In this document: in pieces, positions 23,863 through 56,200 of the stretch | Numbering within the stretch: position 1 is the first letter of the stretch | Layout: every line of letters starts with the position of its first letter | Virus record (IMG/VR): IMGVR_UViG_3300009104_000016 | Span: 1 to 64,000 of that record | DNA: 64,000 bases | Source of the DNA: a virus | Strand: one strand, 5' to 3' | Notes under the pieces: generated by a model | The model's database searches: none | What the model saw: the letters and a program-made list of their open reading frames with translations, nothing else | Told to the model about the DNA's origin: nothing | Translations under genes and position numbers: made by a program

Positions 23863-23902
23863 CAATGGTGCTCAATGGTGCTCAATGGTGCTCAGTGGTA
23901 TT
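23863..23902. repeat. Four 10-bp tandem units CAATGGTGCT
   Basis: Three exact units start at 23863, 23873 and 23883, and a diverged fourth (CAGTGGTATT) at 23893. The unit length is one turn of DNA helix. It lies 28 bases before a second array with the same 10-bp period. Confidence 0.85.
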
Positions 23903-23930
23903 CATGGCGGTAGGGAGTCCAGAATCCCGT

Positions 23931-24050
23931 AGCCCCTTTTGGGACCTTTTGGGGTCTTTCAGGGTTTTTTGGGGTATTCTAGGGTCTTTTGGGACCTTTT
24001 GGGACCTTCTAGGGTTTTGCAGCCCCTTTTAGGGTCTTTTGGGGGTGGGA
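23931..24050. repeat. Twelve-unit array with exact 10-bp period (GGGnCCTTTT-like)
   Basis: Every 10 bases from 23931 to 24050 a unit of the type GGGACCTTTT, AGGGTCTTTT, AGGGTTTTTT or AGCCCCTTTT begins, without any phase slip. GGGACCTTTT occurs twice exactly and AGGGTCTTTT twice. T-tracts repeated once per helical turn are known to bend DNA, and the G-runs could form quadruplex structures. A binding array for a phage origin protein is the likeliest role. Confidence 0.85.
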
Positions 24051-30879: not shown

Positions 30880-31420
30880 AACCGAAAAAGAAGTCCTTGA
30901 AAGAATAGCTTTTGCAATTCTATCAGTGCACACCGCATGGACCGCAAACATACGCCAATACCGTAACATTCAAAATGTAGACTGGATAGAAAAACCCATC
31001 TACATACTCGAAGCTCTCAAACAAGGAGGCGGTATGTTCCACCAAAAAACAAAAGCATTACGAGAACTTCTTGTAAACCGGAAACACTACCTCCCTCAAC
31101 CAAAAGAAGATTGGTTCCAATTCAGAAACAAACTTCTCAACATCCCACACTTGGGATTAGCAAAATCCAGTTTCGCAGCCGAACTGTGCTGCCCCACTAC
31201 AACCGCTCTACATCCCGTATGTCTAGACACCCATGTACTCGGGTGGTGCGGTTACAAAAGCCGTAACGGTAAACTCAAACCAGAAGAATACAAAACTATC
31301 GAAAAAGCATTCGACAACATCTGTGACGACAGACCTACATTCATTATCCGCAACATCCTGTGGGACAAAGTTCAAAACAAAAATTCAGCCCGTTACTGGG
31401 CCCATGTTCTAGAACAATGA
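30761..31420 (+). CDS. HhH DNA glycosylase-like protein
   Basis: The C-terminal two thirds resemble endonuclease III-type HhH glycosylases. There is an FAILSVHTAWTANIRQYRN helix, then LLNIPHLGLAKSSFAAEL (helix-hairpin-helix with a Lys at the usual catalytic place), then VCLDTHVLGWCGY with the conserved catalytic Asp of the DTHV motif. The iron-sulphur loop is absent. It would remove damaged or modified bases. Start: ATG at 30761 overlaps the GP88-like gene by 119 bases; a TTG at 30803 would shorten the overlap. It overlaps rIIB-like by ATGA. A possible link to phage or host base modification is inference. Confidence 0.6.
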   Translation: MGRIKTIPPPTRLSLNNAINGIKESEIAKYNQYWNSLLPKTEKEVLERIAFAILSVHTAWTANIRQYRNIQNVDWIEKPIYILEALKQGGGMFHQKTKALRELLVNRKHYLPQPKEDWFQFRNKLLNIPHLGLAKSSFAAELCCPTTTALHPVCLDTHVLGWCGYKSRNGKLKPEEYKTIEKAFDNICDDRPTFIIRNILWDKVQNKNSARYWAHVLEQ

Positions 31421-32475
31421 AAACAATAATTACTCACGATAGTATAGTTATATTCGAAAACGACGGAGAAGTACGAATCATTCCTCGTTCAGATCCTAAT
31501 TACAACGCTCTTGCCAATGGCATTATAGGCAACAACCTAGACGAAGAAGCCATCAACGATTTAGCAGACCCTTCTGCATATTTAGATAAAGCTTCCGACG
31601 GTAAGTTACGTTTTCAAGATGAAATCCCGCAGCTAAAGCAAACCGACGGCACGTGGATAAACATACCAAAACAAACCCACGACAGGCTTATGCACTTCAT
31701 TCAAGAGCGTAATCCCTTAAACCCGTTCATACACTTCCATGAACACCTACAGAAGAACCCAAGTTTCAACAGCAGAGAACAGTTGTTTAACTTCATAGAC
31801 GACCGCAACATGGCCGTTACACCTTCAGGGGAAATCTTCGGCTATAAAGGAGTACAATCCGATTATTGGAGCCATCACGGAAACCAGAATACCAAACTAA
31901 TCCAAGGAGTGACAGATGGATTCGGCCGAATTCTCAATACCGTTGGTTCAACGATTGAGATGGAACGAAGTCAAGTTGACGACAACCCCGATCATGGGTG
32001 TTCTGCTGGACTCCACCTCGGTACACACGCTTACGCCAATAACTGGAGAGGAGATGACGGAAGGTTTATGTTGGTTACTTTCAACCCAGTCGATGCAGTA
32101 TCCGTTCCCAACGATGGGTTTGAAAAGTTAAGAGTATCCAAATACACAGTAGTAGCCGACATCACGGAAAACCCCCATGCTTTGACTCTTCCTTGTTATA
32201 CGGTAGAAGGAGAAAAAATAGAAGCCATCGAAAAAGCTCAAAACATAGAAGGAGTCAATTTCTCAGACATTGACCCAAAACTTCTAAAAATACTCCAAGC
32301 TAAATTGAAACTCTCCGTGGCCTTAGCAAAAGGAAAGTCTCCGAAATTGGAAAAATTCTTAGTCAAACACGACATAGATATCGCAGACATAGGGGAAGTG
32401 CTTGAGGACAACGCATATGTAGACCAAGGAAGGATCAAAGCCTTCCCTTTCGATCAAATGCCTCACAATAATTAA
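31417..32475 (+). CDS. rIIB-like protein
   Basis: This 352-residue protein (ATG 31417 overlapping the upstream TGA) resembles T4 rIIB. It has an N-terminal strand region, a middle with LFNFIDDRNMAVTPSGEIFGYKGV, and the signature GCSAGLHLGTHAYANNW...FMLVTFNPVDAVSVPNDGFEKLRVSKYTVV. T4 rIIB works with rIIA and is needed to grow on hosts carrying the lambda rex exclusion system. The next gene is rIIA-like, which supports the call. The C-terminal part is helical and Lys-rich. Confidence 0.8.
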   Translation: MKTIITHDSIVIFENDGEVRIIPRSDPNYNALANGIIGNNLDEEAINDLADPSAYLDKASDGKLRFQDEIPQLKQTDGTWINIPKQTHDRLMHFIQERNPLNPFIHFHEHLQKNPSFNSREQLFNFIDDRNMAVTPSGEIFGYKGVQSDYWSHHGNQNTKLIQGVTDGFGRILNTVGSTIEMERSQVDDNPDHGCSAGLHLGTHAYANNWRGDDGRFMLVTFNPVDAVSVPNDGFEKLRVSKYTVVADITENPHALTLPCYTVEGEKIEAIEKAQNIEGVNFSDIDPKLLKILQAKLKLSVALAKGKSPKLEKFLVKHDIDIADIGEVLEDNAYVDQGRIKAFPFDQMPHNN

Positions 32476-32534
32476 CTAGTATATCAAAGCCGGCACATCA
32501 GCTGGCACACTCTCTAATTTAAGGAACAATCATA

Positions 32535-34820
32535 ATGTTATTACAAAATTCAGCCAAACCTATCCTAGAATCTGAAGATTTCGAAAGTATTGAATTCGAT
32601 TTCGATAAAAAATCAAAACATATAATCACAGACATCTTGTCCAACAGGATGTACAGCTATAAGGCTCGCTCGATACTAAGAGAGTACGCAGCCAACGCTC
32701 AAGACGCCAATAATGTTAACCCCAAACTTAAAGACAAAAGAATACATGTGAAACTACCCACCTTCTCTTCTCCTTTTCTAGAGATAAGAGATTTCGGTTT
32801 GGGTATGACGCATAAAGAAGTAGCGGAAACCTTCGTAAAATACGGAGCCTCCACCAAAAGAGAATCCAACGATCAAATAGGAGCCCTAGGCATGGGCGGA
32901 AAAAGTTTCCTATGTATGGCTAAACAAATGGTTGTGATCTCAAAAACGGAAAACACTACCACCACCTATGATTGCGTGCTTAACGAGTTTAAGTTACCCA
33001 CCCTCAAAGTCATAGATTCATCTCCTAATCCAAACCCCAATGACACAGGAGTTCTTATTAAGATACCTATTCAACAAGACGACTGCCACTCCTTCGAAAG
33101 AGAACTAGACCTCTTTTCTCACTGGTCTCCCGAACCTCTTGTGAAAAACTATGAAATACCAGCCACTCCTATTGCAGAAACCGATCACGTAAATGTTGAG
33201 GGACTGGGTTCTATCAAATACCACATACGAGGAGGCGACGAAAGTAGAGTTACTTCTTTAATTATCATGGGAGGCGTTCCTTACAAAACATCTCATAACG
33301 AGTTTAGGAAAACTTCAGATCAAGACTTCTGGGGCCCTCAAGGAAACTTTATAGTGCACGTCCCCATCGGAGCCGTATCAGTCACTTCCTCAAGAGAAGC
33401 ACTTGAGTATGACGAACACACAATTAAAAACCTAACCGCAATATCTCGAGAAATAACCAATAAAGCAGTTAACAACATCCTCAATAAGTTAAGCGAATTC
33501 GATAACTTCTTAACAGCCGCCAAATATTACGACGGCTTAATTGGAAATCTCAGCGCTCCCGTCAGAACAGAACTTAAAAACTCAAAGCCCAATTTCAAGG
33601 GCATGAGACTGGACGTCCACCTTAACCCACCAACAGGTGAAGCGACTCTCTACTTATTCACATGGAAAAAGACATGGTACAGCGGCAGTGACAAAGAAAA
33701 AATTCAAAAAGACAAAGCCAGAGGCCTAGCCTTCGCTGATTCAGAATTCTACTCACATATTACCGAAGCAGAAGATGAAAACGGAGACCCTCGCATATCC
33801 CCAACAGTATATAGAAGAGCTAAAATAAGACTTCAAGCCAACGGCGAGCTTGAAAACGTCTATGTACTCGCAGGTACTCAGGAAGAAATAGACGAAGCCA
33901 AGAAAAACCACGACTTGTGGAACAATCTCAATATTGAAAGCGTATCTACAATCCCGTTACCCAAGATAGTTCGCCAAAACAAAAATGGTGACACAATATC
34001 AGCAGGCCCTACAGGTTTAGCCTTTAAGCTAAATCCCTTCGGCTCGAGTAAAAACGACATCTTCGAAATTCCCGAAGAAGACAACCTACTCGACAGAAAC
34101 GAAAATGTCATATACATACCCATACATTCAAAAAAACCTTACATAGATACCCCCGGTGATTGGTCAATGGAAGACCTTAAGAAAGATCTAACTTGTTACC
34201 TACCGTTGCTAAGGTATGAAATAAATGCAGGTACCATCGATTACCCATCATTGGAGTTCTCCAGTTCCCGAAAAAACTCCCCTTTTTGGGTAATATCCAA
34301 AAGATTACTGTCCAACCCACCTAATAATTGGGTTAGCTGGCACGATTGGAAAAAACATAAACTACAAGATGCTTTACGGAATCTTCAAGATCTCCTCGCA
34401 TATTCTGCTTGGCAAGAACTGTTCCACGGATACAGAAGTGACGAAATTCGAGCACTAGGCTCTCTGCTACGCCCACTAGATGAATTAAGATATGAAAACA
34501 AACTGAAAATCATCAATTCAATGGGCAGCCTAGCACCTCTCAAAAATTTAATCTTTGAGGGAGATAGAGAGGAAGAGCTTAAAGCTTACTACAACACCTT
34601 CATAGAAATCTACTCCATGTATCCTATGCTTAACTTGAGGAACAAAGCAGATGTCATAAACGATATTCTTGAACCACTGGCTAAAAGCGTAATAAAAAGC
34701 TTAAACGAAAAACCAATACAAAGAGCCGTTTTGCATTCTATTACCGCAGGCCAAGACAGGTATACAATTACAGAACCTAACTGGGTACAAGTTTGGAAAA
34801 CACTTAAGCATCTTCTTTAA
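32535..34820 (+). CDS. rIIA-like GHKL ATPase
   Basis: This 761-residue protein has an N-terminal GHKL (Hsp90/MutL/histidine-kinase type) ATPase site: REYAANAQDAN (Asn54, Asp57), IRDFGLGM (86-91) and GALGMGGKSFL (117-126). A second domain around 270-300 has NFIVHVPIGAVSVTSSREALEYD, as in rIIA of T4-like phages. The long C-terminal half is helical and diverse. It pairs with the rIIB-like gene upstream, in the order B then A. AAGGA about 10 bases before ATG is the likely ribosome binding site. Likely role: membrane-associated protection against prophage or abortive systems. Confidence 0.85.
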   Translation: MLLQNSAKPILESEDFESIEFDFDKKSKHIITDILSNRMYSYKARSILREYAANAQDANNVNPKLKDKRIHVKLPTFSSPFLEIRDFGLGMTHKEVAETFVKYGASTKRESNDQIGALGMGGKSFLCMAKQMVVISKTENTTTTYDCVLNEFKLPTLKVIDSSPNPNPNDTGVLIKIPIQQDDCHSFERELDLFSHWSPEPLVKNYEIPATPIAETDHVNVEGLGSIKYHIRGGDESRVTSLIIMGGVPYKTSHNEFRKTSDQDFWGPQGNFIVHVPIGAVSVTSSREALEYDEHTIKNLTAISREITNKAVNNILNKLSEFDNFLTAAKYYDGLIGNLSAPVRTELKNSKPNFKGMRLDVHLNPPTGEATLYLFTWKKTWYSGSDKEKIQKDKARGLAFADSEFYSHITEAEDENGDPRISPTVYRRAKIRLQANGELENVYVLAGTQEEIDEAKKNHDLWNNLNIESVSTIPLPKIVRQNKNGDTISAGPTGLAFKLNPFGSSKNDIFEIPEEDNLLDRNENVIYIPIHSKKPYIDTPGDWSMEDLKKDLTCYLPLLRYEINAGTIDYPSLEFSSSRKNSPFWVISKRLLSNPPNNWVSWHDWKKHKLQDALRNLQDLLAYSAWQELFHGYRSDEIRALGSLLRPLDELRYENKLKIINSMGSLAPLKNLIFEGDREEELKAYYNTFIEIYSMYPMLNLRNKADVINDILEPLAKSVIKSLNEKPIQRAVLHSITAGQDRYTITEPNWVQVWKTLKHLL

Positions 34821-36549: not shown

Positions 36550-36583
36550 GGGCACCTCGCCTACGGGGGTGTCCTTTATTTTT
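36550..36583 (+). terminator. Rho-independent terminator
   Basis: GGGCACC (36550-36556) pairs with GGTGTCC (36568-36574), with one G-T pair, followed by TTTATTTTT. It closes the single-gene unit ending at 36530. Confidence 0.7.
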
Positions 36584-36662
36584 GTTGAAAATGCCTTAAA
36601 ATCCTCTTTTAATCTTCCGTGGGGCTTGGGGAAGCCCGCCATAGCTAATCCCAGAACTCCAT

Positions 36663-36842
36663 AAAGAGGTACGGGGGGAGATGGGATGCGGACTATTCGT
36701 CCGCCAGTCGCCAGACCTTAGTCCTTAAGCTTCAGGCACATAGGTTTCAATCTTGAAATCTGATACCCGAGTATCTCCCTTTTGCGGCTGGCGGTCTGGC
36801 GGCTGGGACTGCGTCCTACCCCATCTCCCCCCGTACCTCTTT
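36663..36842. ncRNA. Multi-branched inverted-repeat element, candidate structured RNA
   Basis: Outer arms 36663-36685 and 36820-36842 are perfectly complementary over 23 bases. Inside, CCAGTCGCCAGACC (36704-36717) pairs with GGTCTGGCGGCTGG (36793-36806) with one G-U. A GCGGAC-TATTC-GTCCGC hairpin (36688-36704) and a GGAC-TGC-GTCC hairpin (36106-type, at 36806-36816) flank that stem. Further hairpins are TTTCAA-TC-TTGAAA (36745-36758) and GATAC-CCGA-GTATC (36762-36775). The region has no open frame of note and lies between the last early terminator and the first late gene. An abundant phage RNA, a packaging RNA or a DNA cruciform used in replication are all possible. Confidence 0.55.
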
Positions 36843-36909
36843 ACTCCATTCTGCGATTAGCTATGACGATAGAAAAATATAAGGGATCCCTTTGTGCCGG
36901 GAAGTTATA

Positions 36910-36919
36910 CAACCGGTTG
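36910..36919. promoter_or_regulatory. CAACCGGTTG palindrome, copy 4
   Basis: Preceded by TA as in copies 1 and 3, this copy lies 58 bases before the ATG of the first late-operon gene at 36978. A small CGTAT-TTG-ATACG hairpin with five T residues (about 36931-36948) lies between. Confidence 0.55.
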
Positions 36920-36977
36920 CCTGGGGTACCGTATTTGATACGTTTTTACCATTTAGGGAACCCGTATTTAAAAAATT

Positions 36978-38048
36978 ATGGACTTAGGAAGCTTCAAAAA
37001 GTGGGCCATGGACGCCCCAGCTCGTCGGAAACAGTTTAGAGATACGCTTTTTCGTGGGAGGTACGCCCCCACGCAGCAGCAGACTGCCGCCGGCACTCGA
37101 TACCAATCGCCGGAGACTTTAAAAAAGATAGAAGAGGCTAAAAAGAAGGCGCAGGCTGAATACGACCGTCCCGCACCTTACGGGTACACAGCACCCGACG
37201 AGAGAGCTTTTGCGGTTAACGATGCACGCCCGAAAGAGGGTTTTATAACAGACCCTGCCTTACCTCGGTATCAGGAAAATGCGCAAACTCCCGGTTACGA
37301 CGGTGTCCAGAGTCCGCAATTCATGCATAATCTTCAAAACGAGAGGAGAGCAGCCGATAACTCCCCCATGCCCGTAGATCAGGAAACGAGCCTCCAGGAT
37401 CACTTCGACGCCACAAATAGAAAGTTTGGTAACGAGTACTACAACGAGCCCGGGACTTCTCCAAAACCAATTGCGCAGGGCCAGCTTCCCGTTTTCACTC
37501 CTTCTGAAGACCCCCTGTCGGGTGGTGGGAGTGGCGTAGAAGGTCTAGATTTAGGCGCTTTAGGTATACCGGCCCCTAAACCCGCCCAAAGCCCGCAACC
37601 GGGGAATGTAACGGGTAACCCCTACCAAAATTTGCTAGATAAACCTTGGTCGGACGAGGGAGCGACGGCAGATCCTCAATCGGTAGTGCAGAATAACTCC
37701 CTGCCAGGCCAAGCAGGCGGCGCCGACGCCTTTAATGCGCGAGTTAATGCTTTAAAACAGCAAAATGCAGGCGCTTTGAAGCAAAAACAGGAACAACCGC
37801 AGGTAATGGCGGGTAGACCTCCCATTGCTCCCCCCGTTCAGCAGCAACAACCCCCCTTGGGTATGCCCGTAGCCCCGGAAAACCAAGAAGACTGGGAGAA
37901 AAAGAAAAATCAGCCCGTTGTACAGGGCCCCCAACTGCCTAAACCAGGGTTTCGCACCGGAAAACCGCAAGCTGGCCCCAATAGCGGAGACCCTAATAGA
38001 AGGCTGTTCCAGAGTCACTGGCAGCAGGGAGTGCGGAGACCTGTTTGA
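36978..38048 (+). CDS. Disordered Gln/Pro-rich virion-type protein
   Basis: This 356-residue protein is dominated by Gln, Pro, Gly, Asn and Ala. An N-terminal basic helix (SFKKWAMDAPARRKQFRDTLF) is followed by long low-complexity stretches. There are no transmembrane spans or catalytic motifs. It is the first gene of the late operon, upstream of a protease and terminase. Such proteins in podovirus-like phages are often internal head or injected proteins. That role is inferred. Confidence 0.5.
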   Translation: MDLGSFKKWAMDAPARRKQFRDTLFRGRYAPTQQQTAAGTRYQSPETLKKIEEAKKKAQAEYDRPAPYGYTAPDERAFAVNDARPKEGFITDPALPRYQENAQTPGYDGVQSPQFMHNLQNERRAADNSPMPVDQETSLQDHFDATNRKFGNEYYNEPGTSPKPIAQGQLPVFTPSEDPLSGGGSGVEGLDLGALGIPAPKPAQSPQPGNVTGNPYQNLLDKPWSDEGATADPQSVVQNNSLPGQAGGADAFNARVNALKQQNAGALKQKQEQPQVMAGRPPIAPPVQQQQPPLGMPVAPENQEDWEKKKNQPVVQGPQLPKPGFRTGKPQAGPNSGDPNRRLFQSHWQQGVRRPV

Positions 38049-38099: not shown

Positions 38100-38984
38100 A
38101 TGAAATTCACGGCCTTCCTTTTGTTTATATCAACATCCGTGCTCATGGCGGCACCCAAAGTGGCCGAGCATCTTCAGGACATATCCGTCACTATTAAGGC
38201 AGAAGACCGTTTCTCACGATCCGAAGGCTCCGGGGTCCTCATCATACGTAAAATCGACGGAGAGGACGTTACCTTCGTATGGACCGCCGCTCATGTGGTT
38301 GATAACCTGAGAAGCGTAAGAGAGGCCATAGACGCCAAAGGCAGTTCTCGGAAGGTCGTGGAGTTTAAGGATGCCAAGGTAGTTAAGGAATTGGTTGAAA
38401 GGGGTCGTCGAGTAGGCGAAATAAAGATGGACGCGCGCGTAATCAAGTATTCCGACTACGATGACGGCCACGACCTGGCGTTATTGATGGTCCGGGCCAA
38501 GGACTACGGCAAGGCGGGAGCTGAGTTCCTTATGGAGAAGAAGGACGACGTGGTCCCGATAGGTACCGAATTGTACCATGTGGGTTCCCTATTGGGTCAA
38601 ATGGGCTCCAATTCCATGACTTCTGGCATAATAGCCCAGGTCGGCAGGACTCACGGCAAAGTGGAGTTTGACCAAACTACGGTTACGGCGTTCCCGGGCA
38701 GCAGTGGAGGAGGCGTATATTTGAAATCGGGACAGTATGTAGGGATGTTGGTGCGGGGAGCCGGGGAAGGTTTCAATTTGATAGTGCCTATACGCAGAAT
38801 GTATAAGTGGGCTTCCGAGAACGATATAATGTGGAGTCTGGACCCCAAGGTGAAATCTCCCACTATGAAAGAGATTTTGAGCATGCCCATTGAATCCGAA
38901 GCCCTGAAGGAGTCCAGTTCCGGTGACGATGACAAATCCGTTGAATTTCCGTTTTTAATTAGGGAAACCACCATAGGAGAATGA
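38100..38984 (+). CDS. Secreted trypsin-like serine protease
   Basis: This 294-residue protein has a signal peptide (about 1-17, MKFTAFLLFISTSVLMA) and a chymotrypsin-fold protease. The triad is His65 (WTAAHVV), Asp125 (GHDLALL) and Ser202 (FPGSSGGGVY, the GxSGG motif). The oxyanion and S1 strands follow (YVGMLVRGAGEGFNLIVPI). It lacks PDZ domains, so it is a short HtrA-like relative. The signal peptide sends it to the periplasm or outside. A secreted trypsin-like enzyme next to terminase genes is uncommon. Prohead maturation is unlikely with a signal peptide; cleavage of an envelope protein or of ejected phage proteins is more plausible. Confidence 0.75.
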   Translation: MKFTAFLLFISTSVLMAAPKVAEHLQDISVTIKAEDRFSRSEGSGVLIIRKIDGEDVTFVWTAAHVVDNLRSVREAIDAKGSSRKVVEFKDAKVVKELVERGRRVGEIKMDARVIKYSDYDDGHDLALLMVRAKDYGKAGAEFLMEKKDDVVPIGTELYHVGSLLGQMGSNSMTSGIIAQVGRTHGKVEFDQTTVTAFPGSSGGGVYLKSGQYVGMLVRGAGEGFNLIVPIRRMYKWASENDIMWSLDPKVKSPTMKEILSMPIESEALKESSSGDDDKSVEFPFLIRETTIGE

Positions 38985-39382
38985 AGAAATCCTCCAAGAA
39001 GTTAAGGGAAGACGTACATAAGTTCATAGAGGAGGACGACTACGCGAAAGCCGTGGACTGTCTTCGTCAAGGTATGAAAGCCCATCATGTCGTGAGAAGG
39101 AGTAGAGAGGACGGTGAAAGGGGTGTCGACTATGAGGAAGTGCCCGATCACGGCGTTCGCTTGACCAGCGCACGGCTTATGTTGGAGTACGGCTTCGGTA
39201 AACCGGCTACACGCCACGAAATTGCCGTTTCCGACAACACGCAGAAGGCGGCGTCTCCCAAGGAGATTATGGAGAGACTTCGAGATTCGGGCCAGAATTT
39301 AGCGGAAATCATGGATGTTTACACAAGCTCGGTACAGGAAGCTGAAATTATAAAGCCAAAGGAGTTGATAAACCATGGATAG
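38981..39382 (+). CDS. Probable terminase small subunit
   Basis: This 133-residue protein overlaps the protease gene by ATGA. The N-terminal half is a charged helical region. The middle contains DHGVRLTSARLMLEYGFGKPATRHE, like the helix and loop of small terminase-type proteins. The C-terminal half has SPKEIMERLRDSGQNLAEIMDVY. Size, helical nature and position two kilobases upstream of the large terminase fit a small terminase that recognises DNA. There is no clear HTH score by eye. Confidence 0.5.
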   Translation: MKKSSKKLREDVHKFIEEDDYAKAVDCLRQGMKAHHVVRRSREDGERGVDYEEVPDHGVRLTSARLMLEYGFGKPATRHEIAVSDNTQKAASPKEIMERLRDSGQNLAEIMDVYTSSVQEAEIIKPKELINHG

Positions 39383-44284: not shown

Positions 44285-47200
44285 ATGGCGTCAGAGTTAA
44301 ATCTGGGCTCCGTTGATTTTGCGGAAAGTCCCGTGGAAAGTCCCAGCTCCCCGGGAGGGAAACCACGGGAATTCGAGCAGTACGAGAGCTTCAAGCAGGA
44401 GGGGGACTTCCTGGAAGACAGGGTGGGAGACCACAAGACGCTGAGCTCCAGCCTGAAATCTCGACGCGGGAAAGTGTATGGTAAAATACAGAAGGTTATG
44501 GAGAACGCCAATGATGGCTACTTCATGGGGGAAGACGAGGTGGGTCCCGAGGAGTGGTTAAAATCGGTAGAAGGCTCCTCTTCTTATAAAAACAATAAGG
44601 AACTTCGCAGTTATCTGGATACGCTTAAGGGCTTTGACGACAAGATTGGCAAGCATGATCTTTTAGCTGAAAAAGCTTTCGCGGAAAGAGATGCGCATCT
44701 GTTGGAGGCTACGAGTATTCCTACGCATTTCCAAAAATCGTACGAGGACTGGCAAGACGAGAGAACAAAAGCAGGCAAGCAAAGAAAACCTCTAGACCCC
44801 GATGAGTTACATGCGTTTCTCAACACGTTTACCCCCTTTTACGAAGAGCCCAAGTTTAACTTTAGAGGTCGCTTGGAGAATGCGGAAGCCGTGGATCCTC
44901 GCTTTGCGGGGGACTACCGTAAGCCTAAAAGGAATTTTACCACGGGTCGCGTGGAAGACCCCGCCATGGATGTTATGCGGGGGCGTATGGCCAAAGCTTT
45001 GGCCGGGGATATCCAAGGTTTTCTCAGCTACAGAAAACAAGCGGAAAAGAACGACAAACTCAGGGCCCGAGGTTTTGAGTTTGGAAGCGGGGGCACCGCA
45101 GACCTGAAGCATCCCTTCGAACTCTCTCGCAATGAAAGAGAGATACTAGATAAGGAGGAAGCAAAGAATCTTGGGTTTAAGTCCTACAGGGGAATCCCTT
45201 TGGATGATGCTTTCGATAAAGACAACGTGGCGCATGCGGGTGAGTTGGAGTCGGCACGGATGATGCGTTTAGTCTTTGCCAGCAATTTGGCATATAAAAA
45301 AGCTTTTGCGCAGTACATGAAGGATCTCGCCAACAAGGCGGATCTTGAGGAAGCTTCGGCTAAGCTGCAGATAGCTCGAAGAGCTCGTGAAGGAGCGATT
45401 CAAAAAGCCATAGGCGCGGGTTTTGCAATGGAGGTGCTGAACCGTGCGGAAGATCGAGGTCTTTTTGGCCAAGCTTTTAACGCAGTCAAGCAAGCGTGGA
45501 AACAGGGGCAAGGTTTAGGAGATGCAGCTCTTCTCTTTGAGCAGGCCGGAGTTACCGGTGGGTTCGGTATCGATGAGATGATCGGCGGAAAGATCGACCA
45601 GGAATTTGCAGAACAGTTGGTTGAGGTAATGGAACAGGCTAAGGAGGGGGGCACCACCGAAAGTTTGCAGGACTACTACCGAGAGATACAGGAAAACGAA
45701 CCTGAGAACTTGGGAGAAGCGTTTGGACAGTTGATTAACAACCCTGCAGCTGCTGCGCAGTTATTCGTACAGTCGCTTTCCATGTACTTGCCGCCGGTAT
45801 TCAGCTACGGACTAAAGACAGTTCCCGCAGGAGCTGCCGCCGGTCTGGTCGCAGGAGGGGGAGCAGGTGCGTTTAAAGGGGCCGGTTATGGACTGCGCTC
45901 GGCTTTTCCGATTGCCTCGTTCTCTCTTTCGTATCTCGGTAAAATTTTCGAGGACATGGAAGAAATGGGGATTGACACTAACAATCCTCGAATTTTGATG
46001 CAGGCGTGGAACAGCCCGGCGGTTATGGAGAAACTCCGGGTAAAGGCGGCCAAGTACGCGGGTGGCGTTTCAATGTTTGATGCCGTGGGTGCGCTAGGTG
46101 CAGGTAGGATAGGAAAAATTCTAGACGGACCTACTAAATTCATAGGTACGTCAGTTCTGCCCAATAGCCAAAAGATGGCTACTTTCTTGAAAACCGGGAT
46201 AAAGACCGGCGGGGAAATAGGCTTCGGAGCGGGGACGGGTATGCTTGGAGATTACGTAGGCCAGAAGTGGTCGAACGATCCCGGGGAGAAAGTCGATCTT
46301 GCCTCGGTAGCTGCCGAAGGTTTGCTCGAAGTAGGCCCTCATGTCGTAACGGCTCCTCTGGAAATGGCCAGAGGTATATGGGGTAAACAGCCAAAATTGA
46401 ACCCGGACGGCACGCTTGACGAAGAGGTCGAAACGGAAGATACAGTTGAGATATCCAAGAGCGAGACGGCACCTGACCCGCGTTCGATAGGAAATACACG
46501 TAACCTGAAATGGCGAGGACAGGAAGTTCCAGTATTTAACTACGCCAGCGAAACGGAATTTACGGAAGGGTTGCGCCAAAAGGCGGAGGAAAACGGAATC
46601 TCTATGGACGACTCGGAGCTAAAAGCTACTGAGTTTTTGGCGAGCGGTTTATTTAATCCGGAAACGGGGTCTCACGGAACAGATCTAAATATAGCGTGGA
46701 TAAATAAAAACGATGCGAAGGCGTTGTTCCCAAAATCCAACCCCCTTCGATCGGCTTACACTCCACATGTCGGCGAGCAAAACAAAGATTCCGTTATCTT
46801 TATAAACATAGACGGCGTAAAGGAAAGGCAGAAACGTGGTGATGCCGGTGTCTTTTCCACGCTTCTCCATGAATCAGCCCATTTCGCCCACGACTTCATC
46901 TACGGAGATGAAGAAATAAGCGTATTTTGGGACGAAGTCGGGCAAGAAGACCGTCAGAAGATGGCCGCCGTATACGCGTCGTCTGGCCGAGCTTCGTCTG
47001 TAAACGATTTTAAAGACGCTTTCGATAACCAAGAAGAGGCTGAGCAGGCTCTAGCGATCTACGACGATTTAATCAATGAGAAAACCGGGGTAAAGTTGAG
47101 AAGAGAGTGGTTCGCGCATCAGGTCACTCGAGTATTGAAGGGGGAAAAGCTTCGAAACAATTCTTTGCAGAAGTTGATACAGGACTTTATAGAGCATCTG

Positions 47201-50200
47201 AAGAAAGCCGTTCAGTTCCTCATGGACGGAGGCCAAGGATCCGAAGTTGGTTCCGGGATAGAAGACAAAGAACTCGATGCTCAATTAGAGCGCTTTATCT
47301 TGGAAAGGTTACGGCCTGGTCTTGATTTTGAAGGTCAAAATATAGGCAATCAAAGGGTTGGCCTGGCTGCAGCTGGGCAATTTCGTTCAGCCGTTACAAG
47401 AGATAAAGAGGAACGAGGCCAGCTTGAGCACATAGTTAACCAATTTATAAACAGGCAACAGGGAGGGAAAGCGGTATCTGATAGTGCGACCCTGAAAAGA
47501 ATAGCCGATACTCTCGGTTTAAAAGAGAAGTCGGAACTGAAGGAAGTGGTGGCTCTTATAAAGAAGCACCGTTCCGCTTTGGCTAAGGCGGAGACTAAAG
47601 AGCAAGTGGAGGCTGCTGAGGAAGCGTACAAGAAAGGTGGAACTGCGCTCTTGCGGGTTAAGGATCAGGCTAAGAAAGCTCACGCGAGGGCGAAGACGGA
47701 AGCCGCAAAGGCGGCGAAAAGCGCCGAAGATAAAAAGAAGTGGGCCGGTGACGCGGCGAAAGAGGCAAAGGAATGGGATTTTCAAGGATCTTCGTTTATA
47801 GATTACGCGCGAAGTAAGGGAGCTGACACTCCCGAGAAAGCTTTTAGATTGCTGTTCAAGCGCCTTAGCGGAAGATTCTACTACAAAGAGGATGCCAATA
47901 CTGTTGCAAACCCTTTTATAATACAGCAATGGTCGGGAGTGGCCCTTGAGAAGCTGCAGACAGAAGAAGGTAAAAACAAAAAGAAGGGGGACACTTTTGG
48001 GTTTGAAATTCCCATAGATAATTTAAAGTTGCCAAAGCTTACAAAAGATACTTTCTACCAAGCGAAAATCGGGGGCGGGCATGGTTACGTAGTGTTTAAG
48101 GTAGCCGATGCCAAGTCTACGGATAAGAAGGGAGTACTTGAAGTCGAAGCTACCGTTGAGCAACTTTTTGAGAACAAAGAAATCGGAACTTGGCTGCAAA
48201 AGGCGGCCGCCAAACTCAAAGAGCCGTTTAAATCCGCACCCAAAGCCAAACCCAAAACCGAAGCTGCATCGAAAGACGACGCCGATCCTGACGACGATGA
48301 CCCCCCTCCTGGAGGAGGCGGGGGACGTGCTTCCGGCGACAGCGGATCGGCAGATGGTACAACGCCGGACGAGAAAGGTTCGGGAAGCCCTCCCGCCCCT
48401 GCTCCTAAGAAGGGAGCAATGCCTGGCGACGCACTGGGGAAGAAAGCCGCCGTCAAGGCGGCTTCTTATTCTGAGGAACCTCCGGTTAGAGAAGATGAGG
48501 ATATATTCAAAGCTCGAGAAGAAGAACTCGACTATACGGCGGGACAGAGAGTAGCTCTGCGAAAAGCCGCCGAGATGGTAGAAGGTAAAACGGGAGAACT
48601 TGTAACGGCTGGTTACGCGGGAACGGGTAAAACCACCATCATGGAGAACATAATCCGGTATGCCTTGGATAAAGGAAGAGACGTAGTGGTTCTAGCCCCC
48701 ACTTATAAGGCCTTGTCGAACATAAATAAAAGCATAGGAAAAGAACTACAAGATAGGATTAGCTCGGAAACAGTCCAGCAGGCTACGCAAAGATGGGATG
48801 ACCGCCAGAAGAAGACAATCTTTGGGTTAAACGGAGAGATAGTATCCCCCAATTCTCTTGTACTGGTGGATGAAGCTTCCATGTTGTCCAACTTCAACTA
48901 CGAGCATTTGCAAAAACACTCTTCCGTACTTTATTTCGGGGATGGCTTTCAACTACCTCCCGTAGGCGGCGATAATCAAGTAATGCAAAATCCGGACGTT
49001 ACTCTTACGGAAGTTAAAAGGCAGAGTCTGAAGTCCAATCTTTTCTTGTTTCTCACCGCTTTGCGTAGCTTGGCTACGCCTAAACTGATTAAACCTCATA
49101 TAGATATCCAGAAACCTGGAGATCTTGATTTTAAGCCGGCGGATGGTGATTTCAAAAAAGAACTACAAGCCGTTTTCAAGAAATGGTTCCAGGGGGGTAA
49201 GAGAGAAGAAGACTCCGTAGTAGCCATATGCCATACTAATAAAAACAGAAGCATACTTAACCAAGGCGTACGGAAGGCTTTGGGCTTTAAGCCAAACACT
49301 TTGAACGAGGGTGAACAGCTTCTCGTGTTAAACAACGGCATACGCTACACCAATTCCGAAACTTTAAATGTTACTTCGGCCTCGGTTATAGACTCGATAG
49401 ATAAAGAAGCCTTAGCGCTGCGTTATAAGTCTCGTTATGCAACAGGAGACGACGCGGGAAAAGAGCTGTCTCCCGAAAATTACGATTTTTACGAAGTTAC
49501 CTCAGACGTAGAAGGGTCTGCCGTTACCACGACGCATCTAGTTATATATGATACGGCTAAAGTGGGCCAAGCCAGTTTTGAACTGGGCGGGGTGTATACG
49601 GAAAATTGGGATGCTCTGCCTTCTAACATGGTTAAAACTCCAGAGCGGGAAAATGCTCCGAAGGAACTAGCCGACAATTTGTACGTTAGTACGTACGGCT
49701 ATGCTTTGACTGCGCATAAGGCGCAAGGTTCCCAGTGGAATACCGTTTTCGTATACCCGGATGTTCGTATAAGCGAAAAAGATTCCTCGGGAAAGTGGCG
49801 CGCAAAAGAAGAAGAACAAGCTCGCTGGCTCTATACGGCGATGGGCCGAGCTCGAAAAAGAGTAGTTCTCACTAACACAACGGAACCATATGCACCTTTT
49901 AGAAATGCAGCAATCCCCAGCAAAGCTCAGATAGAAGCTCTTGCTTCACCGCCCGAAGCCGCACCCGAAGCCGCACCCGAAGCCGCACCCGAAGACGCAC
50001 CCGAAACCAAACCCGAAGCCGCACCCACCGAGCCGGAGAACGAAGTCGATCCCCTGGAACTCGAAAAACGGGACGGCCTCCAGTACTTCGAAGGAAAACC
50101 CTTCACGGGGGTTGCAGTATCAAAACTCAATTCCGGGGCGAAGCTGTCGGAAGCAACCTACAAGAACGGCAATTTGCACGGCCCGCAGACCTTTTGGTAC

Positions 50201-53200
50201 TCGAACGGGCAGAAGTCGTCGGAAACAAACTTCAAGGACGGCAAGCGGGACGGGATTACGACAAGGTGGTACGAGAACGGGAAGAAGGAGTACGAATACA
50301 ACTACAAGGACGACGACTTGCTTTCCATAAAGGAGTGGGACGAAAAAGGCACGCTAACCGAAAACAAACGACTTGACAAACCCGAAGCCGAGCCCGAAGC
50401 TCCAAAGTCGAAGGCCGAGGGAGGTGTACCCACCCGTATTCATGACACGCTAGAAGCTGCAAACGCCGCCGTAGGGGAGCTGAAGGGGGCTCAGTTATTC
50501 GACGGCAGTAACTACATAGTGTCGGATGATTTACGTCCTTTCGTAGTAATAGACATAGAGGGGGTCAAAGTCGCTTTTTATCTCTCTTCCGGGATGGGGG
50601 GAAAAAAATTATCGAAGCCGGGGCATTGGTTCCCGGTTCCCGGCATGTCTCCAAATGGAAGGTGGCTTAACAAGGGGAGCGACTTCGACTTATCCGTATA
50701 CTACGGATCCGATAAGCTGAAGAAGGTAGCCCAGGAGTTAGATGCTAAAATAGGTAATATAGGGTCCTTAATAGAGTCAGCCCTTCCTATGGCTGGTAAG
50801 GACCCTGTTGAGTCGGAAGATGTTAATAAATGGATAACCAACCATCCTACGGTTAACCGGGAAGCGTCCAAGAAAGTTGCTACGAACATAAACAGCATGT
50901 TGGGAGCGTTGGGTGAACCGGCGTTTTACGTAAAGGAGGGAGGGGCCACCACAACTAGGTTAAAACCCGAAACCAAACCCGAAGCCAAACCCAAAGAAGA
51001 GACTATATCTGAACAGGACGTCCTGGATTCCCTTATGTCGGGAACTCCCGAAAAGAAGGAAGACCACGACCCCATCATTTATGCACTGCCGCCCGACCCT
51101 ACTTCGGAAGACAAGCTCCGCTTCGCGGGTAACCTTATGTCCTTGGCGGGCAAGGACGGGAAAGAGAAGCTCTCAACTCTAGTTAACGCTTTAACCGTAG
51201 CAGGAAATCTGGGCTATGAATACGTACTGAAGGACAGCACTCTTTGGACAAGCAACGGAGTGCTTACGGTAGTGCCTCCCGAAGAACTGGGGACCAATCC
51301 CTTGGAGTTCTTCGATAGCAGTCCTAACTTTAGAAAGACAGACAATAAACCCGAAGATCGTAAACGCAACTCCATTAAGAATTTGCTAAAGGCGATCATC
51401 AATATAGATGCTTTGCGCGAGCTGCCCATACAGCACGATTTTCTTTCCTACGACAACTACCAGGGATCTCTCAAGAAAGAACTGCAGCAATTGCAGCAAG
51501 CTGCTAAAAACACGAACGAGGTGTTGTCGATACTTCGAGACGCGAAAGCGTATCGCCTTACCCACGACCAAGCTGTTCCGGACGAGGCGTATTTACGCCA
51601 GCTGCGAAAGCGTATTGAAAAGATAGACCCTTCAGCCGTAGCTCTTTTGAAGGACTCGTCTCTAGGTCTGCCCCCTTCCGTAGTAACAAGGGCAAAGGAA
51701 ATAGCTGAAGAAAAGAAAACATTACTTTCTAAGATAAGCCCCGAAAGGCGATCTTTAATATTTAAACAGGCGGTCAACCAAGCCCTGCGAGAGCGTGCTG
51801 ATGCCAGGCGGCAGGCGGGAGGCGGGAGGAGCTTAGCCTTTCATTCCGGCGGAGCCGAGGGCACTGATTCCTGGTTCTTCCGTCTGGGCCGGCTTTTCGG
51901 AATAGAACAGGTACACTGGGGGTTTGCGTACAATAAGAAAAGCGGTAAGTGGCTCGAGGAGGATAAATCGGAAAGAGGGGGCCTCAAATCCGAGGAGCAT
52001 GAGCTGATAGATTGGCAGTGGGACGGATACGGGTACGGAAACAAGTGGTTGTTGGAGCAGGCGGTACAGGCTTACAATGCCGCTTTGGATATGCAGAAGA
52101 AGTGGTCTCCTTTTGCACGTCACGATTCCCAGTTACGGATTCTCACTAATGACCAAGGGCAGCCTATGAGACGGATGCCTAACGGCAATCTGGTGGCTCT
52201 GAGACCTCCTGGAGATGGTAGACCCGGTGACCGACTAGTGGTCGAGAGAACTCTTGACAAAAAACTCCCCTCTCGGGTGGAAAAGCTTAAGCTTAGAAAC
52301 TACTACCAGATACAGAACACCAATTCCTTTGGCCCTCTTGAAGGCAAGCGCACAAGCTTATGGGCCAATGACGGGGGGCAAAAACCCTGGTTGCACTTAG
52401 TTAACGAAGTTATTGCGGTGGTAGGTAGAAACAATGAAGGCGGCTTCTCGTCGGGCGTGCGGGAAATACCCGAAGGTTCAAAAGATAACGATTGGAAAGT
52501 GCATATAGATGAGTTCAACGTAAAAGCCCGCGATTTCGATTCCTCTTTGCCTGCGGATTACGATCTTTCCATTTGGCAACACAAGAAAACATTGCAGGAG
52601 GAAGAGAAGAAGGCGTTCAACAAGAGTCTTCGAGACTTCAGCCGCCGTGTACGCCAAGTCAATTATATTGACGGGGGTTCGGGTTTCGCTGTTCAAATGG
52701 CTGTCATGGAGTGGTTCCGCACTCAGTGGCGACGCGATCTGTCTCAGCCCCAGAAGAAAGAGAACCAGGCCGATGAAACTAGTTTTCACGTATATAACCA
52801 GTCGGACAATCAGTGGTATACCCTGGACAAGAAACCTTATCCGTATACCAGGGGAGGAGCCGCGTTGACGGGAGTGGAGCTAGAGTGGGTTCCCATAGAT
52901 ACCGAAAACGCAAAGCTTACTCTGTCTTTGGAAGAGGGAGCGAGGTCCGCTATGATAGGTACGCGAGATCTGACGCTAAGCGGAAGGCGGGCCATGGAAA
53001 AACTTCTGGCTGATTCTTTTCCCGATTTTGCGGAAGACTTCGAATACCTACAGGGGTTCGACGAAGAATACGGCGGTATACTGTACAAGAACCTGTACAC
53101 CCCGCAAGGAGCTATCGCCAACCTGCAAGAGGAGATGAAAATGCTCCATCAACTTCCTTTCCTCGAAGGTGGGAAGTCTCTGACACATTACGATAAATTT

Positions 53201-56200
53201 TTAAGACTGCCCGGGGATGCCGTATTGGAGGGAGATTTATTTTTACCCGGAGGATTGTTCGAGAGCACTCTCGTGAACAGCATCAACATAAACGGGAAAA
53301 AGATCACGTACGGACAAAAGTTCAGCCTGTCTCAATTAGCGGAATCCAAAGGCGGGATTTCCATGATCGAGCGGATTGAGAAGAACCTAAAAAAGCGGTT
53401 GGATAAACTGGTTGAACTGGGACAGGAAGTGAAATTCGCCACCGAGCATGAAAAACTGTACGACTTGTATAACCAGATTCAAGCTTTTAAACAGTTCTAT
53501 GTTTTCGAAATGACAGACACAGCAGGGGACCGTATGGGACCTCTTGCGTCTTTGTCGAAAGAAGAAATCGAAACGCTGGCGATTGCTATAGATATGTCGG
53601 GCAAGAGGGGGTGGTCCTCGAGTCAGCGACAAAAAGATCAATTGATCTCAAGTTCTCGGAATCCTAATTTGGTAGATGCCGTAATTTATAATTTATTGAA
53701 GGCGGCGTACGACACGAAGCTGATAGATGGAGAGCAGGGGCTTACGAGACTGTTTAAAGAATGGTCTGATGAAGTGCAGCGAAACCCGGAAGGCGAACTG
53801 GCTGAAATTTTAAAACTTTCCACCCGAGCCCCAATGCTTCTTTCAGAAGAAGCTTTAGCGGAGCTGAGCCCCAAGGGCGAGGGAACGGGAGGTACTTGGG
53901 AGAAAACTCCCGAGAATGAGATATATCAAACGCAAGGTGTTGAAGGTATCCGCCAACTACGAGTCCAAGGCGTAAAGGCAACGCACTCTATTAACCCCCT
54001 CGTAGATCCTCCTGGTAATCTTTTTTCGGAAACGGACGAACTTCCCCTAGGAAAGATACCCCCAACCGACGAAGAGCTGAAGGCAAAAGGTGCCACCCCC
54101 TCCTCCGTTACTCGGAAAATAAAAAAGGAGAGGGGGGAGAAAGACGGTTTCAAGGAAGAAAGCTTCCTCGGAGGTTTCCAGAGGAAAGAGGGAGAGGTTG
54201 TAGAAAGTTACGAAGATTATGCAGACAGAAGAGACGCGGAAAGGCGAGAGCGCGACAAGGTATATCCCGAGCAGAAACAGCGCAAGTCTGTAAAGGTAGC
54301 TAAGGGGAAACAAGAAGTCACTCCCGAATACAGCGTACCCGAAGATACCACAGTACTTCCTGAAGACTCGATGATCCGGAAAATGTTGGATCGAGAATTC
54401 CCTCTCGAGTTAGTTCAGCATTATATAGATATCGGGCTTATACCGGATTCGGATCTAAAGGAGCTTGCTAAATACACAGCCGAAGCGGAGAAAGACCCTA
54501 ATCTTACCAAAGACTGGAACCAGAAAGATTTCCAAAGATTAGGACTGGAAAACGCAAGAAAAATTTTGATAAGGCAAATGCTTCATTACTTTAGCGGAGG
54601 TGGGCGTCCCAAAAGACTTTCCTCAAGTACTACGGGTTTGGCCAGCTTCGAAGAACATTTGTCGGAAGCTCTAGAGGAGCTTTTAGCTTTTAGAGAAACG
54701 TCTTCTCCCGCCAGAGCAGAGGCAATCGCTCTGGAGGAAAAACTCAAAGATTGGCGCACATCCATAATCGCTGCCCGAAGTTTTTTCAGTGATTTGCTAA
54801 ACGCCGAAGATATCCCCGAGGGGCGTAAACCTCACCCTGTGCTGGACACTCCCATCTTCTTCAAGAGAAGCCCCGATCCCAACAAGTCTAACGCTTCTAT
54901 ATTGGAGTTTCTGCCCGATGGTTACGAGATACTGGAGAAAGAGTTACAGGAGAGGACGGAACTTATAGAAAAAATACGTAAAAGCCTACGAGCTGTAGAG
55001 AACGATATCCGAACCCAAAAAGACCCTAAACATAATATAGGTGTTTTACATGCACTTCGAAGGAAACTGCACCGTACTGACAACGTTCTAAGTTCGCTAG
55101 AAGAAAAGACTACCAAAATAAGTCCGAGAATACTGTTAAACCAAATTCTCAATTTCGGAGTTACAAGAGCTTTCGGGGAACATAAAACCGATACAGTGGC
55201 CCTTGATCCCGCTACGGAGAACATGGAACAACTGGACGTAGGCGATCCGTTCCACGATAATCTTTTCGCCCTTGTCCGGTCTTTATCCGAACCCCTACCA
55301 AAGCCAGAAGGACGGAAAAGGACAGCCAGGGAGCAGGAAGAAATAGATACATGGGTACGTAAAAACAAAGAGCGTCTCCGCAAAAAGTGGAAGGACGGTA
55401 TCCTCAAGTTCGAGGATGCGGCCGCGCGTTTAACCAGCTCCAGTGGAGCTAATATTCGAAAAGAGGTTTTCGGGCACCTACTAACTCAATGGCTGGGCGC
55501 ACCTGATATTGCGAGAAACAAAAACTACCAAAAGGTTATGGAGGCCCTCTTTGAAAACGCTGCCGAGGACTCGTCCGGCACGGCAAAGGTGGACCCTATG
55601 AAGTTGGAGAAGGAAGAAGCGTTAAGACTTCTTATTTCGTTGGCCTATGGGGAGGTAGATATAGACGGCAACCCCGTCCAACATTTCGATTTGGATATGA
55701 ACATAAGCCCCGACCATTCGCGTAGCAGTGGTACCGTTTCTCCCGAGGGGGACATAATAGAGCGTAAAACTTTGAAAGAAGAAGGTTCCGATTCCGACTA
55801 CTTCAACCCAGAGGCTGATCACGATTCCCCCATATTCAAGACTTCTAGCACGGACCCTGTTCGCAAAAAAGCGGAGGCCCGAAGAGAAAAGGCTTTGGCT
55901 TCCGATATGAAGTTTACGCGAGCAATAGTTGACCAATTTCCACATGTTTCGCATTGGTGCGCAGGCGTTATGCAAGGGCTGCACGATCGAGGGCAGCTCT
56001 CGTCCTTAAAAGGGCATCAAGTAGACGACCTTAACTTTATCCAAAAAATTAGACTGTATTTCGGGAAGACGGGAGATCAGTTAAAAGAAATCCAGCAGCA
56101 GTACGAGAACCCTGTGCTTGAGCTTTTAAGCAGCGCTAAATTGAAGGATCCGTTAGGTACTTTTGGAGACTACCTATATGCAAGATACGCACCTGTGCGA

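What the first reader, a model, noticed from the sequence alone, without database searches (positions are those of the whole stretch)
36663..36842. Multi-branched inverted-repeat element, possible novel phage ncRNA
Outer arms of 23 perfectly paired bases enclose a second 14-bp stem (one G-U) and at least four small hairpins, with no gene inside. It lies between the terminator at 36550 and the first late gene. Nested perfect stems imply selection for structure. A packaging RNA, an abundant regulatory RNA, or a cruciform in DNA replication are all possible. I know of no family with this layout.
Basis: partly seen in the sequence, partly recalled or inferred. Interest (0 to 1): 0.85.

Follow-up and report, generated by a model that had tools for sequence, protein, structure and literature searches.

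The report
Structured noncoding hub in marine phage
A 230-base stretch between the early and late genes of an uncultured, apparently marine phage can fold into one long branched hairpin; relatives keep folded elements in the same spot, and in about half of those examined the fold looks like an unknown RNA read from the opposite strand, close to where the genome may start copying itself.

Summary
The arms are 24 bp perfect (36662-36685/36820-36843), part of a 49-nt, 86% inverted repeat (36637-36868). It is the strongest fold in the window on both strands (z about -10). It is in no Rfam family, has no second copy, and lacks terminator or mobile-element hallmarks.

Relatives found through the terminase (142 matching stretches) put a 0.4-0.9 kb noncoding region in the same place, between the early terminator and the first late gene. 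The window shares only its downstream 'block B' with them (nhmmer E=6e-5); its inverted repeat is not recognisably homologous. In about half of the typed relatives the strand opposite to the genes folds strongly. One 51-nt helix there has significant compensatory changes and 21 G-U against 1 A-C pairings, as expected of an antisense-strand RNA. Other relatives carry different long hairpins at this locus. Near-identical phages carry unrelated versions, swapped with a 7-10 kb early module whose border is 'block A'. In five near-complete genomes the cumulative GC-skew minimum lies within 0.75 kb.

Best reading: a new structured control locus, probably a leftward noncoding RNA at a replication origin. 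In relatives the RNA is likely; in the window strand and function are unproven.

The parts
36637..36868 (.). whole inverted-repeat element (49-nt arms, 86% complementary, 134 nt between them)
   Evidence: folds on both strands
36662..36685 (+). left perfect arm, 24 nt
   Evidence: locus coordinates 1563-1586 of L001
36820..36843 (+). right perfect arm, 24 nt; contains CCCCCCGTACC, similar to the C-run/GTACC core of relatives' block A (not significant by profile)
36640..36650 (+). outer left arm, 11 nt, same register
   Evidence: sequence; fold
36855..36865 (+). outer right arm, 11 nt
   Evidence: sequence; fold
36688..36704 (+). small hairpin GCGGAC-TATTC-GTCCGC
36704..36717 (+). 5' side of the 14-bp inner stem
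36793..36806 (+). 3' side of the 14-bp inner stem (one U-G on the + strand)
36742..36761 (+). small hairpin
36762..36775 (+). small hairpin GATAC-CCGA-GTATC
36806..36816 (+). small hairpin GGAC-TGC-GTCC
36550..36574 (+). early-operon intrinsic terminator, left border of the noncoding locus
   Evidence: relatives have a hairpin plus T-run at the same place
36909..36972 (+). block B: conserved ACCGGT...GGGGTACC...GGGAACC motif upstream of the first late gene; the one part of the locus significantly shared with relatives
   Evidence: nhmmer E=6.3e-5, the only hit below 1 in the genome
35901..36530 (+). last early ORF (209 aa, no family)
36978..38048 (+). first late ORF (356 aa, no family)

Best explanation
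The inverted repeat is this phage's version of a structured noncoding control locus that its lineage keeps between the early-operon terminator and the late operon. Shown: the structure is real; the position is conserved; in many relatives the strand opposite to the genes forms a helix with compensatory changes, so the functional molecule there is most likely an RNA read leftward from the conserved block A/B. Inferred: in the window the same role is played by one large rod, again most simply read as a leftward RNA of about 250-300 nt. Inferred and less sure: the locus is, or adjoins, the replication origin (GC-skew minimum; a three-fold TAYCAC hexamer in relatives' block A followed by an A-rich stretch), and the RNA acts there in cis as primer or copy-control RNA, somewhat as RNA II/RNA I do at the ColE1 origin. 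In this model a phage initiator binds block A and the RNA stem-loops set when the primer is used or when the late operon is switched on.
For: Position: relatives that reach far enough have a 417-875 nt noncoding region between a terminator with T-run and the first late gene, with block A and block B near-invariant in most. Block A occurs only in this lineage, once per record (53 records). Block B is in the window (E=6e-5). RNA on the minus strand in relatives: of 20 cores, 8 fold with z <= -5 on the minus strand (to -11), 2 on the plus strand. Helix H2, 51 nt, 12 sequences without gaps: 10 pairs with changes on both sides against 6.1 shuffled, covariation score 0.352 against 0.204 (0/500 shuffles), slid controls at most 0.116; wobble cells 21 G-U against 1 A-C, row-shuffled expectation 29.5 and 11.0. 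Helix H1 base, 9 sequences: 6 double-change cells against 2.3 (3/500), covariation 0.198 against 0.115 (2/500). L048/L058: each 5' strand with its own partner -35.9 and -26.7 kcal/mol; L048 5' with L058 3' only -21.1. An H2 covariance model hits 20 loci at 40 bits or more, all at this locus and on the strand opposite to the genes. Origin: cumulative GC-skew minimum at -734, -137, +44, -72 and +117 nt from the conserved late gene in five near-complete genomes; third-codon-position skew of same-strand genes steps up there in all five.
Against: The window copy matches neither the block A profile nor the H2 model. It folds equally well on both strands, and its one inner wobble is G-U on the + strand, so its strand is unknown. 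Among 38 A/B-typed relatives, 18 do not show the strong fold in the core, though several of these have other long hairpins just upstream. The structured type is patchy on the terminase tree (13 changes needed, at least 11 forced by well-supported branches). L058 5' pairs slightly better with the L048 3' strand than with its own (-28.9 against -26.7), so the swap test is one-sided. No transcript data, no recognised promoter and no terminator for a leftward RNA. GC skew is indirect: the second step in skew lies about 18-24 kb downstream rather than half a genome away, and a 10-bp repeat array at 23.86-24.05 kb is another origin candidate.
Confidence: 0.42

Rival explanations
1. DNA-level element without an RNA role: a dyad or cruciform at the origin, bound by the phage initiator or used for priming on single-stranded DNA.
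For: GC-skew minimum; both strands fold equally, DNA fold z -12.7; hexamer repeats in block A of relatives; polA-family polymerase, DUF5906 and helicase genes encoded.
Against: In relatives the stems hold G-U on one strand and almost never A-C (21 to 1 in H2), which a double-stranded DNA element would not produce; folding is strand-asymmetric.
Confidence: 0.2
2. Leader RNA of the late operon on the + strand: a long RNase III site or antitermination element that processes or releases late transcription.
For: It lies upstream of the late operon; 24 bp of perfect helix would suit RNase III; block B is adjacent; the + strand fold is as strong as the - strand fold in the window; some divergent relatives fold better on + (L081, L083).
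Against: In the relatives with covariation the signal is on the - strand. No promoter match upstream of the repeat.
Confidence: 0.18
3. By-product of recombination or a mobile repeat: an inverted duplication at a module border with no function of its own.
For: The locus is a recombination border: L047 and L049 are 99.7% identical over 1588 nt to the right, 97.7% over block A, unalignable to the left; G002/G003 differ by a 7-10 kb module ending at block A. Relatives carry unrelated inverted repeats here.
Against: No second copy in the genome or in IMG/VR; no target duplication seen; relatives keep pairing through compensatory change.
Confidence: 0.12
4. DNA packaging site (pac/cos) or packaging RNA near the terminase genes.
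For: Upstream of the gene block that contains the large terminase; some long contigs (L012, L032) end about 0.5 kb upstream of the conserved late gene.
Against: Other near-complete contigs run straight through it; no Rfam match to any packaging RNA.
Confidence: 0.07

Closest known systems
ColE1-type origin RNA II / RNA I
   Same: a structured RNA of a few hundred nt at a proposed theta origin, with stem-loops and an opposite-strand relation to neighbouring transcription
   Different: analogy only: no sequence or covariance match, no shown primer, and a phage with its own polymerase and helicase genes
c4 antisense RNA of P1/P4-type phages (Rfam RF01695)
   Same: structured antisense-strand phage RNA in a control region
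   Different: no match to any Rfam family here; no antirepressor gene recognised next to it
HK022 put / late-leader antitermination RNAs
   Same: structured element at the start of a late operon
   Different: the covarying strand in relatives is opposite to the late operon
phi29 packaging RNA
   Same: phage structured noncoding RNA
   Different: no Rfam match; context is a conventional terminase-driven tailed phage
marine and phage candidate RNAs of Weinberg et al. 2010 (PMC2864571), e.g. manA, wcaG, PhotoRC-II
   Same: candidate structured RNAs in marine metagenomes and phages found by comparative genomics
   Different: those named are mostly possible 5' UTR elements; the ones in Rfam were searched here without a match

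Membership tests
Any Rfam 15 family | score at or above the curated gathering score | tested here: not met
   window and 11 relatives, 0 matches; only sub-threshold MIR1437 on both strands, 33 bits against 168
The H2 helix family defined here from relatives | covariance model R1 match at the locus on the strand opposite to the genes | tested here: not met
   20 loci at 40 bits or more; no match at 36.6-36.9 kb in the window
The lineage's early/late junction locus | noncoding region between the early terminator and the first late gene, with block B upstream of the late gene | tested here: met
   terminator 36550-36574; block B at 36909-36972, E=6e-5
The lineage's early/late junction locus | block A (TAYCAC hexamers, CTATCAATCAC, A-rich stretch) | tested here: not met
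   no significant profile hit in the window genome; MAFFT places the right arm there with weak similarity
Intrinsic terminator | GC-rich stem followed by a T-run | tested here: not met
   the scan finds only the terminator at 36550; no T-run after either arm
MITE or insertion-sequence remnant | terminal repeats found in several copies, target duplication | tested here: not met
   single copy, none in IMG/VR, no target duplication visible
Replication origin | initiation of DNA synthesis maps here | not testable with these tools
   GC-skew minimum is indirect support
Noncoding RNA | a transcript exists | not testable with these tools
   only covariation and strand-specific wobble in relatives

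The most novel reading that the evidence does not exclude
A new class of rapidly swapped, strand-specific phage RNA at the replication origin: each phage carries one of several unrelated structured RNAs next to a fixed initiator-binding block, exchanged together with the early module as a specificity type, like plasmid incompatibility RNAs, so that co-infecting relatives are told apart.
Probability: 0.15. Interest if true: 0.85.

Novelty: new member of a known kind. Interest (0 to 1): 0.55.

Why it matters
If right, a widespread but uncultured phage lineage carries an undescribed structured RNA at its early/late and possibly replication switch. The locus is also a natural recombination border, so it would show how phages exchange early modules while keeping origin and late control intact. 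It gives a defined RNA (helix H2, model R1) that can be looked for in metatranscriptomes.

Tried and rejected
DNA similarity to known phages: no match. Exact arm search in IMG/VR: none. The protein just upstream and the first late protein as baits for closer relatives: no relatives, so the window's own arms could not be tested for covariation. Genome collection with the terminase: one hit, in a metagenome bin labelled archaeon, probably a stray virus contig, so the host is unknown. MAFFT-based RNAalifold on whole cores gave little because helix lengths vary; the ungapped H2 and hand-aligned H1 alignments were used instead (one bulged A was removed from the L040 row of H1). A weak sigma-70-like site at 36585-36613 (TTGAAA-17-TTTAAT, by eye) was not accepted by the scan. 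A simple count of 1x1 mismatches in G-U-free folds (88 G-U, 16 A-C) is partly due to base composition. MITE, terminator and packaging-RNA readings: see the membership table and rivals.

Full report
OBSERVATION. The perfect arms are 24 bp (36662-36685/36820-36843), inside a 49-nt, 86% complementary inverted repeat, 36637-36685/36820-36868, the longest in the window. RNA folding of 200 nt gives -108.5 (+) and -110.9 (-) kcal/mol, z about -10 on both strands with no shuffle as low; DNA folding gives z -12.7. Tiled over 64 kb it is the first-ranking fold on each strand. The inner 14-bp stem and four small hairpins are there. The early terminator (36550-36574) and the first late ORF (36978) flank it. 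It is not a terminator (no T-run), has no second copy, and matches no Rfam family.

CONTEXT. The window is 64 kb of a 68,336-base virus record. Genes found: polA-family polymerase, DUF5906, DUF2800, a helicase, a sigma-like protein, RIIA/RIIB-like proteins, an SU10-type portal and a 4856-aa ORF. The terminase has 142 matching stretches in IMG/VR and only distant cultured relatives (all under 60% identity; the listed best rows 20-31%). The lineage is uncultured and its host unknown; that it is marine is a guess, not tested here.

THE LOCUS IN RELATIVES. In relatives that reach far enough, the early genes end in a hairpin with a T-run followed, mostly, by CCGAGTC; then come 417-875 noncoding nt, then the conserved late gene (homolog of window 38981-39382). 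Two blocks are near-invariant in most: block A (CCCCCCACCTCC..GGGGTACCACTATCACTACCACTCGCAATCGCCTATCAATCACAGAAATAAAAA) and block B (CAACCGGTGGTAAGGGGGGTACCAAAA). Block A is found only in this lineage, once per record, in 53 records. The window has block B (E=6e-5, unique) but no significant block A; its right arm sits in that place and has a similar C-run/GTACC core. So the window's element is positionally equivalent, not recognisably homologous.

STRAND AND STRUCTURE. In 20 relatives the core was folded on both strands: 8 reach z <= -5 on the minus strand (down to -11.2), 2 on the plus. The folds show a long hairpin H1, whose 5' strand is block A, then H2, then a longer H3. For H2 an ungapped 12-sequence alignment gave 10 pairs changed on both sides (shuffled 6.1; 0/500), covariation 0.352 against 0.204 (0/500), and slid controls at most 0.116. 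Wobbles in H2 are 21 G-U to 1 A-C as read on the minus strand (row-shuffled expectation 29.5 to 11.0): on the plus strand these would be 21 broken pairs. H1 is weaker but positive. A covariance model of H2 finds 20 loci at 40 bits or more, all at this place on the strand opposite to the genes; the window has none there. These numbers support a leftward RNA in those relatives; no transcript has been seen. The shuffle control does not remove the effect of shared ancestry, but the slid controls do not reach the observed values.

PATCHINESS AND EXCHANGE. On the terminase tree the types with and without the strong fold are scattered: the structured type needs 13 changes, at least 11 of them forced by well-supported branches. 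Near-identical phages differ: L047 and L049 are 99.7% identical from 87 nt before the late gene onward and 97.7% over block A, and share nothing detectable further left. Two near-complete genomes share most of their length but not a 7-10 kb early block that ends at block A. So the structured part travels with the adjacent early module, and block A is the border. Relatives without the strong core fold often have other long hairpins just upstream: one type with a conserved loop and replaced arms (L006, L018, L074), and one multi-branched type with conserved inner sequence and replaced outer arms (L016, L020, L045, L118, L136). The latter resembles the window's layout but not its sequence.

ORIGIN. 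Cumulative GC skew has its minimum at the junction in five of five near-complete genomes (within 734 nt of the conserved late gene), and third-codon-position skew of same-strand genes steps up there. The minimum is not explained by a change of gene strand, since genes on both sides run rightward. But the skew falls again some 18-24 kb downstream rather than half a genome away, and a 10-bp repeat array at 23.86-24.05 kb in the divergent region is a rival origin. I treat origin function as plausible, not shown.

CONCLUSION. The finding is a genuine, strongly structured noncoding element in a conserved control locus, and the locus encodes what is probably a new antisense-strand RNA in relatives. 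For this particular copy the strand, the transcript and the function remain open.

Noticed in passing
window 23863-24044: Two arrays of 10-bp repeats (CAATGGTGCT; CTTTTGGGGT-like) in the noncoding stretch between the leftward replication genes and the rightward early genes; a candidate origin or regulator-binding array. TRF did not find the same array in four relatives.
   Followed up: partly
L006:3704-3771, L018:1700-1758, L074:1528-1595: Hairpins with 14-21 bp arms of differing sequence around a shared loop CATATRTCTC-N-CCTGAA, between the early terminator and the core.
   Followed up: partly
L016:1418-1499, L020:1361-1451, L045:568-653, L118:7029-7119, L136:8179-8269 (minus-strand coordinates): Multi-branched elements with replaced outer arms and a conserved inner part CCC.TTCGC-hairpin-GCTGGYGCC; no Rfam match. 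Possibly a structured RNA family of its own.
   Followed up: partly
G002/G003, -7 or -10 kb to block A (L109-L112, L101-L104): A whole early-gene module is replaced between two otherwise similar phages, with block A as its right border.
   Followed up: partly
window 44285-58855: One ORF of 4856 aa covering a fifth of the genome; not studied.
   Followed up: no
window 31360-34820: RIIB- and RIIA-like proteins in the early region.
   Followed up: no
window 24-36 kb: Early region has 41-45% G+C against roughly 46-55% elsewhere in the window, with a sharp change at the junction.
   Followed up: no
window 8788-9181 and 11005-11334; G001-G003 about 25-29 kb upstream of the late gene: Tandem repeats of 36 to 42 bp, apparently coding, at a similar place in several genomes.
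   Followed up: no
L156 (CALIKS010000014.1): A member of this phage lineage (terminase 76%) sits in a genome bin labelled uncultured archaeon; probably mis-binned.
   Followed up: no
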